DNA of 64,000 nucleotides from a virus, in IMG/VR virus record IMGVR_UViG_3300035670_000058, positions 1-64,000 of that record; one strand, 5' to 3'. Shown here piece by piece: positions 1 to 7,674 of the stretch. Under the pieces are notes generated by a model. That model saw only the letters and a list, made by a program, of their open reading frames with translations, searched no databases and had not been told where the DNA came from. Position numbers and translations under genes: made by a program. Within the stretch, counting starts at the first letter, position 1; each line of letters starts with the position of its first letter.

Positions 1-2522
1 GTTATGCTCAAGGACAGGCAACAATCTTTGCAGCCTATCAGGGATATGCTCAAGCCGCAGGAACCTTGCTTGCATCTATGTATGCAGTTGCACAGGCAGA
101 GGCTAAAGTTTACGTCCAACTCTCAACCGTAGATGGATACGCGCAGTCTCTAGGGCTTATTGGTGTAACAGATAATCTTTATACAGCGATTGATGAGATA
201 ACGCCAGATGATACTGACTACGTAGTCGGTACAGGTTCAAATGCAACATTTGCTCTTGATTCCGTATATCCGCCAACATGGAAGATTGATCATATCCTGC
301 GTATCCGCTATCAGACTGCTGGTGTCGGTGCGGGTGGAAATGTTCAACTACGTCAGGGTAGTACAATTATCTGGCAGACTGTTGGAAATATTACTGCTTC
401 TGAATGGACAACACTTGAGTACAGCCTGACCCCTGCTGAGATGGCATCGATCACAGACTACTCAGATTTGAATGTTCATATCACGACTGTTGATAAGTTC
501 CTTATCTCTTGGGTTGAATTCCAAGTCCCCTCTGGAGAGCCATCCTCACGTATACGGAATTACGCACAGGCTCAGGCTGACATCAAGCATACTTCTGAAG
601 AGGTTGCGCAAGCACAGGCAGATATTCTGGCTACTGCTCAAGTATTTGCTCAGGCACAAGCGCACATTTATCGCACAGAAATTGGTGCAGCAAATGCACA
701 AGCAGCGATAAAGCAAACATACACCAACTTCGCTCAGGCACAGGCAGATACCAAGCAAACGTATCAGGCATACGCGCAAGCACAGGCCGATATCAAGCAT
801 ATGTATCAAGTATTCGCACAAGCGAATGGTTCTATCAAGCAGCAATATCAGCAGTTTGCTCAGGTCGCAGCCATTGTTCGGACAACAGAAACGGTTGTTG
901 CTCAGGCACAGACTAGCGTAAAGGCTTCCTACCAAGTATCTGCACAGGCACAAGGCTCTATCAAGCAGACGTATCAAATTTATGCACAGTCACAAGCAAC
1001 TATTGAGCAAACATACCTTGTCTACGCTCAAGCACAAGCAGTCATCAGAAATACGTATCAGGTATACGCGCAAGCCCAGAGCATTATACGGACAACAGCA
1101 CAAGTATTTGCAAATGCTCAAGCTAATATCAAGCATACATATGAGGCATTTGCTCAGGCTGAAGCACAGATTCTTATCCCAATCTACACTAGGGAGCAAA
1201 TTGCTCAGGCGCAAGCAAATATTATTGCAACTTATCAAGCCTATGTCCAAACACAGGCAAAGATCAATGCTTACGGTGTTCAAGGGTATGCTCAAGGTCA
1301 AGCATGGATCGGTGGACAAGTTGTCCAGTATGCACAAGCACAGGCAAGACTATATGCGTTCAATATTCAAACTTACGCACAATCTCTAGCGCACATACAA
1401 CGGACTGAACTTGGGTATGCTCAAGCGCAAACATCTATCAAGCAGACTTACAGTATATATGCACAAGCACAAGCACAAATTCGCGCACAATACCTTGTTA
1501 CTGCTCAAGCCGAAGCATGGATAGAAGTAATCTCCAATGCCTATGCTCAGGCTAACGTTTGGATCAAGGTAACCTTCACAGCCTCTGCACAGGCACAAGC
1601 AAAACTGCGGGCATACGGTGTTCAGAGTTACGCTCAAGCCAATGCGTATATCTTTGGATCATGGCAACAAGTTGCTCAAAGCCAAGCAACAATCAAAGCA
1701 ACTACAACGGTTGAAGCCAATGTACAGGCCGATATTAAGCAGACTTATCGTGGATTTGCACAGGCTCAAGGCTGGATTCTTATCACAGGCAAAGCCTATG
1801 CACAAGCCAGATCAACTATCGAAACAACCTATACTAGCAATGCTCAAGCGCAAGCAAAGGTCAAGGCTATTGGTGTTCAAGCCTGTGCAAATGCACAAGC
1901 AAATATCAAGGCTACATATCGTGGATTTGCGCAAGCACAGACTACAATAAAAACAGCATATATCCAGACTGCTCAAGCAAATGCGTATACACGGATAACT
2001 ATCCCAATATTTGCTCAAGCACAATCACAAATTAAGACAACTTACTATGTAAGTGCACAAGCACAAACAGGTATTAAAGCATCCTATCAGGCATATGCAA
2101 ATATAACAGCCATAGTAATGAACGCCTCGGTGGCTTACGGTCAAGCAGGGGCCGCTGTGAAGGCTGTGGGGCAATCCTACGGACAGGCTGAAGGCTATAT
2201 TCGAAACTTCTACCAAGCATATGCTCAGGCGCAAGGACACATAGTTATTCTAGATGTGCCCGTATTCGCACAGGCGCAAGCAGTAATTAGTAAGTCTGCT
2301 GGATATGCACAAGCGGAAGCATCCATTACTGTTGTCAATTTCCTAAAAAGTCTTACTCTTGAAGATCGGGTAGATATGGGCTTGATCCTTGCTGATCAAC
2401 TATCATTCACTGTGGTACTACAAGATACAGGAATCACAATAAGCTTAAAGGATACAAATATGACGCTAGAATTATCAGACAGGGAAATAGATCAACTTGA
2501 TCTATCAGATAAAAATTATTAG
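1..2522 (+). CDS. 14-residue-repeat fibre-like protein (5' end outside window)
   Basis: The reading frame is open from base 3, already inside repeat units, so the start lies outside the window; about 839 residues are visible. More than forty tandem units follow the consensus (Y/F)AQAQAxI(K/R)xTYQx, mostly exactly 14 residues (42 bp). A non-repeat, beta-rich block of about 120 residues (roughly bases 160-540) interrupts them and looks like a jelly-roll or carbohydrate-binding insert. The last 60 residues are also non-repetitive. The 14-residue period equals two heptads (aromatic and Ile at one position, Ala and Thr at the other), so an alpha-helical coiled-coil shaft is possible; the alternating A-Q-A-Q could equally suit a beta fibre. 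A paralogue lies at 29358. Role as a tail fibre or appendage is inferred from repeats and that paralogue's position. Confidence 0.75.
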   Translation, partial: YAQGQATIFAAYQGYAQAAGTLLASMYAVAQAEAKVYVQLSTVDGYAQSLGLIGVTDNLYTAIDEITPDDTDYVVGTGSNATFALDSVYPPTWKIDHILRIRYQTAGVGAGGNVQLRQGSTIIWQTVGNITASEWTTLEYSLTPAEMASITDYSDLNVHITTVDKFLISWVEFQVPSGEPSSRIRNYAQAQADIKHTSEEVAQAQADILATAQVFAQAQAHIYRTEIGAANAQAAIKQTYTNFAQAQADTKQTYQAYAQAQADIKHMYQVFAQANGSIKQQYQQFAQVAAIVRTTETVVAQAQTSVKASYQVSAQAQGSIKQTYQIYAQSQATIEQTYLVYAQAQAVIRNTYQVYAQAQSIIRTTAQVFANAQANIKHTYEAFAQAEAQILIPIYTREQIAQAQANIIATYQAYVQTQAKINAYGVQGYAQGQAWIGGQVVQYAQAQARLYAFNIQTYAQSLAHIQRTELGYAQAQTSIKQTYSIYAQAQAQIRAQYLVTAQAEAWIEVISNAYAQANVWIKVTFTASAQAQAKLRAYGVQSYAQANAYIFGSWQQVAQSQATIKATTTVEANVQADIKQTYRGFAQAQGWILITGKAYAQARSTIETTYTSNAQAQAKVKAIGVQACANAQANIKATYRGFAQAQTTIKTAYIQTAQANAYTRITIPIFAQAQSQIKTTYYVSAQAQTGIKASYQAYANITAIVMNASVAYGQAGAAVKAVGQSYGQAEGYIRNFYQAYAQAQGHIVILDVPVFAQAQAVISKSAGYAQAEASITVVNFLKSLTLEDRVDMGLILADQLSFTVVLQDTGITISLKDTNMTLELSDREIDQLDLSDKNY
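3..2340 (+). repeat. Degenerate 42-bp tandem repeat encoding 14-residue A/Q-rich units
   Basis: Runs of GCTCAAGCACAAGCA-like sequence recur about every 42 bp, interrupted by the insert at about 160-540. The repeats are diverged at DNA level, with synonymous variation, so the period is kept by protein selection rather than by very recent duplication. Confidence 0.85.
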
Positions 2523-2533
2523 GTGGTGATTAT

Positions 2534-2827
2534 ATGGCAAAGCCTAATCGATATGTGCTTGGATCAAAGCCAGAGCTCGATTTAACTTTTTACAACGAAG
2601 AGGGGCAAAGATTTACCCCGACAGAATATCGATTGAGCGTAAAAGACCCGACAGGGGTGGTCACCACCTATTCTGGCGGTGATTTAACTCAGGCGTCAGG
2701 GTATTTGTTCGCAATGTACAAACCCCCTGTGGTGGGCTACTACGAGTATGAAGGATGGGGCAAGGATGGTGCCGGCCGAGAGATCGCATCTACTGCCTCA
2801 TTTGAAGTCTATGATCGATTATATTAG
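2534..2827 (+). CDS. Small beta-rich protein of unknown function
   Basis: 97 residues with ATG after a GGTGGTGA ribosome site, 11 bp behind the fibre-like gene, so probably co-transcribed with it. The sequence alternates polar and aromatic residues and reads like a single Ig-like or baseplate-type beta domain (Y-rich, ending in a strand). I do not recognise the family. Its place directly after a fibre gene suggests a small structural or fibre-attachment protein; that is inference from position only. Confidence 0.7.
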   Translation: MAKPNRYVLGSKPELDLTFYNEEGQRFTPTEYRLSVKDPTGVVTTYSGGDLTQASGYLFAMYKPPVVGYYEYEGWGKDGAGREIASTASFEVYDRLY

Positions 2828-2833
2828 AAGACC

Positions 2834-2863
2834 TTGAACCTACGCTAGTCACTGTGCTATGAT
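2834..2863 (+). promoter_or_regulatory. Sigma70-like promoter upstream of structured RNA
   Basis: TTGAAC at 2834-2839 and TATGAT at 2858-2863, separated by 18 bp. The 9-mer TTGAACCTA recurs at 42349 and 42465, and the 18-bp spacing is shared with the promoters at 42349, 47488 and 52156. Predicted transcription start is near 2870, exactly where the self-complementary sequence begins. Confidence 0.7.
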
Positions 2864-2868
2864 GGCAT

Positions 2869-3187
2869 TAGCCAGAATGGGTAGGGACCGCCCCTCTCAC
2901 TTAGGGGTTTGTGAGCAGGGAAACCTATTCGTTCTGGCAAATACTTCTGGTACACAACTTAGATAGATATACTAATCAAATTCGAAATCCGGTGACACAG
3001 TTCGATACGCATACCTCTGTTCTTCGCTTATCCTAGGTGACAAGCGTACCAAGTCCCTGCTATCTCCCTGAAACGTGACGAGAGAGTATGATTCCCTGTG
3101 CAGTCACTATCATTTTCTAGGTCTAGCGACGGTTAGCGATATTATTTCTGGCCGGAAATAATGGGTGTGTACCAGAAGTTTTCTTTT
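2869..3187 (+). ncRNA. Putative large structured RNA
   Basis: No convincing ORF. Pairing seen by eye: GCCAGAA 2871-2877 with TTCTGGC 2932-2938, continued by GGGTAGG 2879-2885 with CCTATTC 2924-2930. Inside it CCCCT 2891-2895/AGGGG 2903-2907 and CTCAC 2896-2900/GTGAG 2911-2915 interlock, as a tight pseudoknot or as alternative hairpins. A perfect 14-bp helix (2943-2956 with 3166-3179) encloses GTGAC-ACAG 2992-3000 with 3096-3107, then TACGC 3006-3010/GCGTA 3044-3048 and ACCT/AGGT, plus an 8-bp hairpin 3141-3148/3155-3162. The closing strand runs into TTTTCTTTT, which could end the transcript. It sits directly behind a promoter and ahead of an HNH gene and the tRNA array. I recognise no known family; function unknown. 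Confidence 0.65.
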
Positions 3188-3198
3188 GAGGTATTATT

Positions 3199-3642
3199 AT
3201 GAGAGTTTACGGTCCCTATACAAGAAAAGACGGACGTAAGCACGTCGTACTCTGGAACGGGGAAACGACCCAAACAGTTTCTTATCCTCGCTATATTATG
3301 GAAGCCCATCTAGGGCGCAAGTTAGAAGAGTGGGAAACTGTTGATCATATAAATAGAGACTTTACGGATGACCGGATTGAAAATTTACGACTAGTGGGAA
3401 GGAGCCAACACAGCAAGGACGACGCTACCTACGCTAAACTCATAAAAAATGAGTGCGTTTGGTGTGGAACCAAGTTACTGCGGCGTCCAAGTAAGATGAG
3501 AGAGGCTGCCAAGAGGGCACAGGCTGGTCCCTTTTGCAGTAAGAAATGTATAGGGGAGTACGGAAGAATGGTACAAAATTCAATGCTAAGACTTCCGATT
3601 CAAGATTCCCCCCAGTCTGAGTATTATCAAAAAGAGAAATAA
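3199..3642 (+). CDS. HNH homing endonuclease
   Basis: 147 residues, ATG after a GAGG ribosome site. An HNH_3-type core (ETVDHINRDFTDDRIENLR) lies around residues 47-65, with the catalytic D-H pair and downstream Asn; a C-terminal zinc finger follows (CVWC near residue 93, then CSKKC). Such proteins are usually free-standing homing endonucleases cutting phage DNA. It lies between the structured RNA and the first tRNA gene, 6 bp ahead of the tRNA. Whether it is mobile together with the RNA is unknown. Confidence 0.88.
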   Translation: MRVYGPYTRKDGRKHVVLWNGETTQTVSYPRYIMEAHLGRKLEEWETVDHINRDFTDDRIENLRLVGRSQHSKDDATYAKLIKNECVWCGTKLLRRPSKMREAAKRAQAGPFCSKKCIGEYGRMVQNSMLRLPIQDSPQSEYYQKEK

Positions 3643-3648
3643 CTCTGT

Positions 3649-3725
3649 GGGGGCGTATTCCAATCGGTAGAGAAATGGGTCTTAAACACCCTAAAGTGTG
3701 GGTTCGAATCCCACCGCCCCTACCA
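3649..3725 (+). tRNA. tRNA-Leu-type, anticodon UAA, short variable loop
   Basis: Acceptor GGGGGCG/CGCCCCT, anticodon loop CTTAAAC, T arm GTGGG-TTCGAAT-CCCAC, discriminator A73 and encoded CCA. The anticodon UAA reads UUA (Leu). The variable loop is only 5 nt (AAAGT), whereas bacterial tRNA-Leu normally has a long class II arm. The D stem is weak (about 3 bp). Confidence 0.85.
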
Positions 3726-7639: not shown

Positions 7640-7674
7640 AAGGAGTAGCCTTCGGGCTGCTCCTTATTTTTTTG
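7640..7674 (+). terminator. Rho-independent terminator closing the tRNA cluster
   Basis: AAGGAGTAGCC, a TTCG tetraloop, GGCTGCTCCTT (one G-T pair), then ATTTTTTTT. Lies just after the last tRNA and before the packaging genes. Confidence 0.88.

What the first reader, a model, noticed from the sequence alone, without database searches (positions are those of the whole stretch)
2834..3190. Promoter-driven structured RNA at the head of the tRNA array
A TTGAAC-N18-TATGAT promoter is followed at the predicted start site by about 310 nt with no good ORF and heavy self-complementarity. The 14-bp perfect long-range helix (2943-2956 with 3166-3179) encloses nested helices, and a separate 5' domain can form an H-type pseudoknot or two rival hairpins. 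Large ornate phage RNAs such as GOLLD and ROOL are known to occur near phage tRNA genes; this one is shorter and I do not recognise it. It may be a new class.
Basis: partly seen in the sequence, partly recalled or inferred. Interest (0 to 1): 0.88.

Follow-up and report, generated by a model that had tools for sequence, protein, structure and literature searches.

The report
Structured leader RNA before phage tRNAs
A phage that carries its own set of tRNA genes starts that set with a conserved promoter and a folded, non-coding RNA, and its relatives led to a previously uncatalogued RNA motif that heads or sits inside the tRNA clusters of dozens of other phages.

Summary
2834-2863 is a promoter whose hexamers are kept in a relative (L004) although its spacer has diverged. 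About 310 nt follow with no good ORF and unusual folding (z -3.3). The 14-bp helix is real: L004 keeps all 14 pairs through five two-sided changes (2e-4 in simulation). No Rfam family matches. The RNA is the 5' leader of the tRNA array, in two parts. Domain 2 (2943-3179) is a discrete module known only here and in L004; a closer relative (L026) lacks it. Domain 1 is this phage's stripped version of something wider: L004 and L026 carry there a ~70-nt motif (P1-GGACAAGGCUUNGG-P2...P2'-GUGGGNNGCGAGUGG-P1') that also occurs in many Streptomyces phages and in Arthrobacter, Microcystis and metagenomic phages. Twelve of its 13 pairs covary; it usually starts at a promoter's start site, in tRNA/tmRNA arrays. 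The window has lost the motif's core, keeping promoter, outer stem and apical loop. The H-type pseudoknot is not conserved, and no conserved terminator supports an end at ~3187. Likely role, inferred: a cis-acting leader that keeps RNA polymerase going through the array, working like but not related to HK022 put.

The parts
2834..2863 (+). sigma-70-type promoter TTGAAC-N18-TATGAT with TG before the -10 (predicted start about 2869-2871)
   Evidence: Same hexamers and spacing in L004 with a different spacer sequence; TTGCAT-N18-TATAAT in L026; promoters at the orthologous place in the other relatives
2871..2938 (+). domain 1: 5' hairpin, outer stem 2871-2885/2924-2938; reduced counterpart of the GGACAAGG motif of L004/L026 (core absent here)
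   Evidence: Fold; outer GCCAG/CTGGC stem shared with L004 and L026; models R2 and R3 find no motif in the window
2896..2915 (+). apical hairpin CTCAC/GTGAG with loop TTAGGGGTTT (2901-2910)
   Evidence: Loop identical in L004, TGTAGGGGTTT in L026; 4 of 5 stem pairs changed on both sides, none broken
2943..3179 (+). domain 2: ~237-nt module closed by the 14-bp P1 helix
   Evidence: Homologue in L004 (1714-1956), BLASTN 62% identity; found only in these two with model R1; absent from L026 and other relatives
2943..2956 (+). P1 5' strand ACTTCTGGTACACA (pairs with 3166-3179)
   Evidence: 5 two-sided compensatory pairs vs L004, 0 broken
3166..3179 (+). P1 3' strand TGTGTACCAGAAGT
   Evidence: as above
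3018..3046 (+). TGTTCTTC (boxA-like, 3018-3025) and hairpin CGCTT/AAGCG (3025-3046)
   Evidence: L004 has TGCTCTTC followed by CACAT/ATGTG: 2 two-sided changes in 5 pairs; the boxA reading is a resemblance only
3123..3136 (+). hairpin CTAGC-GACG-GTTAG
   Evidence: L004 TTAGC-GACG-GCTGA: 1 two-sided and 2 one-sided compatible changes, none broken
3141..3162 (+). hairpin ATTATTTC-TGGCCG-GAAATAAT (self-complementary loop)
   Evidence: 3 of 8 pairs changed on both sides vs L004, identical loop
3199..3642 (+). HNH_3 endonuclease ORF, absent at this place in L004 and L026 (not part of the RNA)
   Evidence: Pfam PF13392 E 5.8e-10; leader-to-tRNA sequence of L004 and L026
3649..7541 (+). tRNA array served by the leader, from tRNA-Leu(taa)
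   Evidence: ARAGORN, 14 tRNAs; strongest + strand terminator-like site 7640-7665

Best explanation
This is the structured 5' leader of the transcript that carries the phage's tRNA array. Transcription starts near 2870; the nascent 5' end folds at once into a hairpin (domain 1) and then, in this phage and L004, into a compact module closed by a 14-bp helix (domain 2). It then runs on through the array to the terminator after the last tRNA, and tRNA processing by RNase P would cut the leader off. I think the leader most likely acts in cis on the polymerase that has just made it, suppressing pausing and Rho-dependent termination over the ~4.8 kb, poorly translated array, in the manner of HK022 put RNA. 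In relatives this place is filled by a widespread ~70-nt motif with an invariant core; this phage lost the core and may rely on domain 2 instead. Shown: promoter conservation, leader position, covariation, modularity, motif distribution. Inferred: co-transcription to the terminator, RNase P removal, antitermination, substitution by domain 2.
For: Promoter hexamers conserved while the spacer drifts, with tRNA-Leu(taa) downstream in L004 and L026. P1 and three other helices covary. Of 13 family members examined (window included), 11 have a folded leader beginning at or near the start site and two put the tRNA right at it. The domain-1 motif starts at the start site of a TTGACA promoter in Streptomyces phages; in Circinus and Ankus the order is promoter-motif-tRNA-Asn and further tRNAs. 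Motif covariation: 9 of 10 P1 and 3 of 3 P2 pairs changed on both sides, 90.6% of cells paired against 55% shuffled and at most 49% slid. One strong copy per phage, none in 150 Streptomyces genomes. The strongest + strand terminator-like site is past the last tRNA. HK022 putL, ~70 nt and just downstream of its promoter, works without dedicated protein factors on terminators 10 kb away (PMC9378689).
Against: No transcript or termination data. Two relatives have no leader at all and several have unrelated simple hairpins, so a leader is not strictly needed. The motif is not always at a start site or before tRNAs: L094 has two copies between ORFs, and in Streptomyces phage Braelyn the next gene encodes a vWA-TerF-like protein. 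Its shape (one stem with a 14 x 14 nt conserved internal loop) differs from the two stem-loops of put. The array holds many small ORFs, so it is not wholly untranslated. Domain 2 rests on two sequences.
Confidence: 0.42

Rival explanations
1. The leader is a protective and processing device: a stable hairpin at the very 5' end shields the precursor from 5'-end-dependent RNases and keeps the leader from mispairing with the tRNAs until RNase P and RNase E mature them. Any strong hairpin would do.
For: Relatives without the motif use unrelated but equally terminal hairpins (L007, L013, L015, L037); the window itself reduced domain 1 to a plain 15-bp hairpin.
Against: A generic hairpin does not need the invariant two-sided core GGACAAGGCUUNGG/GUGGGNNGCGAGUGG kept across unrelated phages; two phages have no leader.
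Confidence: 0.27
2. Domain 2, or the whole leader, is released from the tRNA precursor and acts in trans as a stable non-coding RNA, as GOLLD and ROOL are thought to do, for instance by binding a host factor or multimerising through the self-complementary UGGCCG loop.
For: Compact module whose ends are held together by 14 bp; tRNA-Leu about 10 nt after it in L004, so RNase P would free it; GOLLD and ROOL occur near phage tRNA islands (PMC12286853); self-complementary loop kept in both sequences.
Against: No Rfam match; only two sequences; no separate conserved terminator; much shorter than GOLLD.
Confidence: 0.17
3. The leader or motif is a ligand-sensing (riboswitch-like) element controlling the array in response to a metabolite or to tRNA.
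For: A strongly conserved internal loop between two variable covarying helices looks like a binding pocket.
Against: No alternative terminator or sequestered ribosome site seen next to it; downstream genes vary (tRNAs, vWA-TerF, unknown ORFs).
Confidence: 0.08
4. It is an intron or mobile-element remnant (group I intron, retron or IscB-type guide RNA) with the HNH gene downstream as its partner.
For: HNH_3 gene directly downstream; domain 2 present or absent among relatives; HNH genes next to or inside the motif in Streptomyces phages Bmoc and Persimmon.
Against: No group I, HEARO or other Rfam match up to E 10; L004 has domain 2 without the HNH gene; no reverse-transcriptase or RuvC-type gene next to it; the end repeats change by compensatory substitutions instead of keeping a recognition sequence; HNH genes are common in tRNA arrays.
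Confidence: 0.04

Closest known systems
HK022 put RNA (phage antitermination RNA)
   Same: About 70 nt, phage-encoded, directly downstream of a promoter at the head of a long transcription unit
   Different: put has two stem-loops and a triplex and precedes early genes; the motif here is one stem with a large conserved internal loop and mostly occurs in tRNA/tmRNA arrays; antitermination is untested
GOLLD and ROOL RNAs
   Same: Large structured phage RNAs near tRNA islands
   Different: No covariance-model match; far shorter; a leader with its own promoter and no conserved terminator of its own; known in two phages (domain 2)
Bacterial rRNA-operon leader (boxB-boxA-boxC antitermination)
   Same: Leader of a stable-RNA operon; domain 2 holds TGYTCTTC like boxA, followed by a hairpin, in both sequences
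   Different: The boxA likeness is 7-8 nt only, absent from the other leaders, and embedded in a closed domain

Membership tests
GOLLD / ROOL (Rfam families) | Match to the family covariance model | tested here: not met
   cmscan at gathering and up to E 10: no match; L004 leader only chance miRNA matches
GOLLD / ROOL (Rfam families) | Phage-encoded near tRNA genes | tested here: met
   tRNA array follows
HK022 put RNA | Lies just downstream of a promoter | tested here: met
HK022 put RNA | ~70 nt folding into two stem-loops | tested here: not met
   The motif is a single P1-internal loop-P2 stem; the window leader is ~310 nt in two other domains
HK022 put RNA | Suppresses pausing and termination through RNA polymerase | not testable with these tools
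   needs transcription assays
Group I intron | Core matching the Rfam model, inside a gene | tested here: not met
   no match; lies between promoter and tRNA, tRNA-Leu intact
Retron ncRNA | Reverse transcriptase gene next to an RNA with paired ends | tested here: not met
   paired ends present, but the neighbours are an HNH_3 gene and a tRNA in L004
GGACAAGG motif (described here) | Core GGACAAGGCUUNGG / GUGGGNNGCGAGUGG between P1 and P2 | tested here: not met
   window: no match with R2 nor with R3, filters off; met in L004, L026, L094 and phages of Streptomyces, Arthrobacter and Microcystis
rrn-type boxA leader | boxA (TGYTCTTT-like) bound by NusB-S10 | tested here: inconclusive
   TGTTCTTC / TGCTCTTC at the aligned place in two sequences; binding not testable

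The most novel reading that the evidence does not exclude
Phages have their own class of antitermination RNAs for tRNA and tmRNA arrays: a ~70-nt start-site-anchored motif (GGACAAGG/GCGAGUGG core) shared by unrelated phages, replaced in the window's phage by a different folded module (domain 2) doing the same job.
Probability: 0.27. Interest if true: 0.85.

Novelty: new variant of a known kind. Interest (0 to 1): 0.66.

Why it matters
Many large phages carry tRNA arrays, yet how these long, poorly translated operons are started, kept running and processed is little known. The leader gives a handle on that, and the motif it led to, present in dozens of sequenced phages including many isolated on Streptomyces strains, can be tested at once with cultured phages. 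It adds a structured-RNA family to the short list known next to phage tRNAs and shows that this place in the genome is a hotspot for swapping RNA modules.

Tried and rejected
Rfam: no family. BLASTN of the window RNA and of L004's in phage and plasmid records: nothing. Pattern scans for domain 2 in viral and genome collections: only L004 was a true match; the other viral hits looked unrelated, and the genome-contig hits were at the chance level, with eight of those loci negative for R1. Structure-aware alignment of window and L004 inflated compensatory counts because the alignment follows the structure, so it was not used as evidence. H-type pseudoknot: not conserved. Terminal-repeat mobile element: rejected because the repeats covary. 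R2/R3-like hit in L055 (8e-5 with R3) lacks the 3' core; Pseudomonas and Variovorax BLAST hits are GC hairpins, not members. L067's leader was considered as a divergent member; the models do not support it. Papers on a tRNA-array leader motif: none found, in an open-access library only.

Full report
WHAT IS THERE. The window is the first 64 kb of a 114,680-base virus record. At 2834-2863 stands TTGAAC-N18-TATGAT with TG before the -10, followed by about 310 nt without a good ORF, an HNH_3 gene at 3199-3642, and 14 tRNA genes from tRNA-Leu(taa) at 3649. The strongest + strand terminator-like site is 7640-7665, past the last tRNA. The RNA folds better than 100 of 100 shuffles (z -3.29) and matches no Rfam family up to E 10.

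RELATIVES. Terminase searches gave about 40 viral contigs, nearly all of one phage family, and the 97-aa gene upstream of the promoter gave leaders. In thirteen family members, the window included, the sequence before the first tRNA could be read. A promoter-like site stands at the same place in all (for L007, L008 and L010 read by eye; the script picked other sites there). What follows differs: L004 has domain 1 plus domain 2; L026 (same phage as L003, 89% terminase identity) has domain 1 only; L007, L008, L010, L013, L015, L037 and L040 have other hairpins; L067 has an unrelated ~340-nt leader; L052 and L047 start at the tRNA itself. So the place is conserved and its contents are exchanged.

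DOMAIN 2. Only L004 has it: about 62% identical by BLASTN. Model R1, built from the two, finds no third copy in the relatives or in the motif-carrying phages. Three more helices (3025-3046, 3123-3136, 3141-3162) show six two-sided and two one-sided compatible changes without a break, but were chosen with both sequences in view. A GTGA/TCAC pairing (2992-2995/3104-3107) is invariant and so untested. TGYTCTTC at 3018-3025 resembles boxA and is kept in L004; this may be chance.

DOMAIN 1. The window's version is a 15-bp hairpin with an inner hairpin whose loop TTAGGGGTTT is identical in L004 and nearly so in L026, while 4 of 5 stem pairs differ on both sides. That supports this hairpin, not the pseudoknot, whose other strand is missing in the relatives. 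Between these shared parts L004 and L026 carry GGACAAGGCTTNGG and GTGGGTAGCGAGTGG, absent here.

THE WIDER MOTIF. A scan for the 3' core in viral contigs found it in an unrelated contig, L094, which holds two copies. BLASTN of L026's domain 1 touched Streptomyces phages within their tRNA arrays, and of the Braelyn copy found 126 records, 93 of them Streptomyces phage records, some of these duplicates; Pseudomonas and Variovorax copies that were checked are not members by model R2. Reading the loci gave one architecture: P1, C, GGACAAGGCUUNGG, P2 of 3-4 bp, a loop usually beginning RUGA or RUAA and of very variable length, P2', GUGGGNNGCGAGUGG, P1'. Model R2, built from eight Streptomyces phage copies only, recovers L026 (8e-14), L004 (4e-12), Arthrobacter phage Mimi (4e-15), Microcystis phage Mwe-JY13 (1e-16) and both L094 copies (2e-8, 1e-5). 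On 20 distinct sequences 90.6% of pair cells are standard (shuffles 55%, slid at most 49%), 12 of 13 pairs change on both sides, and the covariation score is 0.81 against 0.18. The alignment was fitted to the model, which favours it, but the size of the difference and the slid controls leave little doubt. Usually the motif begins at the start site of a TTGACA-N17/18 promoter; in Circinus and Ankus it directly precedes tRNA-Asn, Leu, Val, Leu. No copy was found in 150 Streptomyces genomes with stricter filters. The window lacks the core even with filters off.

MECHANISM. A folded element at the extreme 5' end of transcripts of tRNA arrays, conserved across unrelated phages but replaceable, fits a device acting on the emerging transcript. 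I rank an effect on RNA polymerase (antitermination, as HK022 put, PMC9378689) above mere protection of the 5' end, because a protective hairpin would not need an invariant internal loop. The trans-acting reading remains open, chiefly for domain 2. None of these functions is shown.

NOVELTY. Neither domain nor motif was found in Rfam 15, and no paper in the open library was found to describe them. GOLLD and ROOL are known neighbours of phage tRNAs (PMC12286853) but are not matched. I class it as a new variant of a known kind (phage leader / structured RNA near tRNAs) because no new mechanism is demonstrated.

Noticed in passing
L141 (Streptomyces phage Bmoc) 1001-1513; L133 (Persimmon) 1628-2061: HNH endonuclease genes sit inside or overlap the GGACAAGG motif: in Bmoc a broken 5' copy, then the HNH gene, then a full motif of another type, as if homing carried its own copy.
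   Followed up: partly
L131 (Microcystis phage Mwe-JY13) about 2500-3280: The motif lies in a ~750-nt stretch without annotated genes after the terminase gene, with a promoter-like start, many GCCGAAAGGCA-type hairpins and ends resembling a tRNA acceptor and T arm; no Rfam match above chance. Possibly a large structured RNA.
   Followed up: partly
L067 2828-3175: A 348-nt promoter-driven leader before tRNA-Leu(taa) in another family member, without recognisable relation to the window's RNA or the motif; no Rfam or phage homologue.
   Followed up: partly
L140, L144, L145, L139, L141 (motif P2 loop): Long-loop copies share a second conserved internal loop (GUAGUUCAAGCG ... CCACUUAAUGAUGCUC around a small hairpin), a possible optional second tier of the motif.
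   Followed up: no
L013 about 3455-3506 and L015 about 2312-2362: A second hairpin (GCCATATCC...GGATATGGC in L013) between the 5' hairpin and tRNA-Leu, in the place that domain 2 takes in the window.
   Followed up: no
window 66-2522: Long repetitive ORF (818 aa) of YAQAQA-type repeats just upstream of the 97-aa gene.
   Followed up: no
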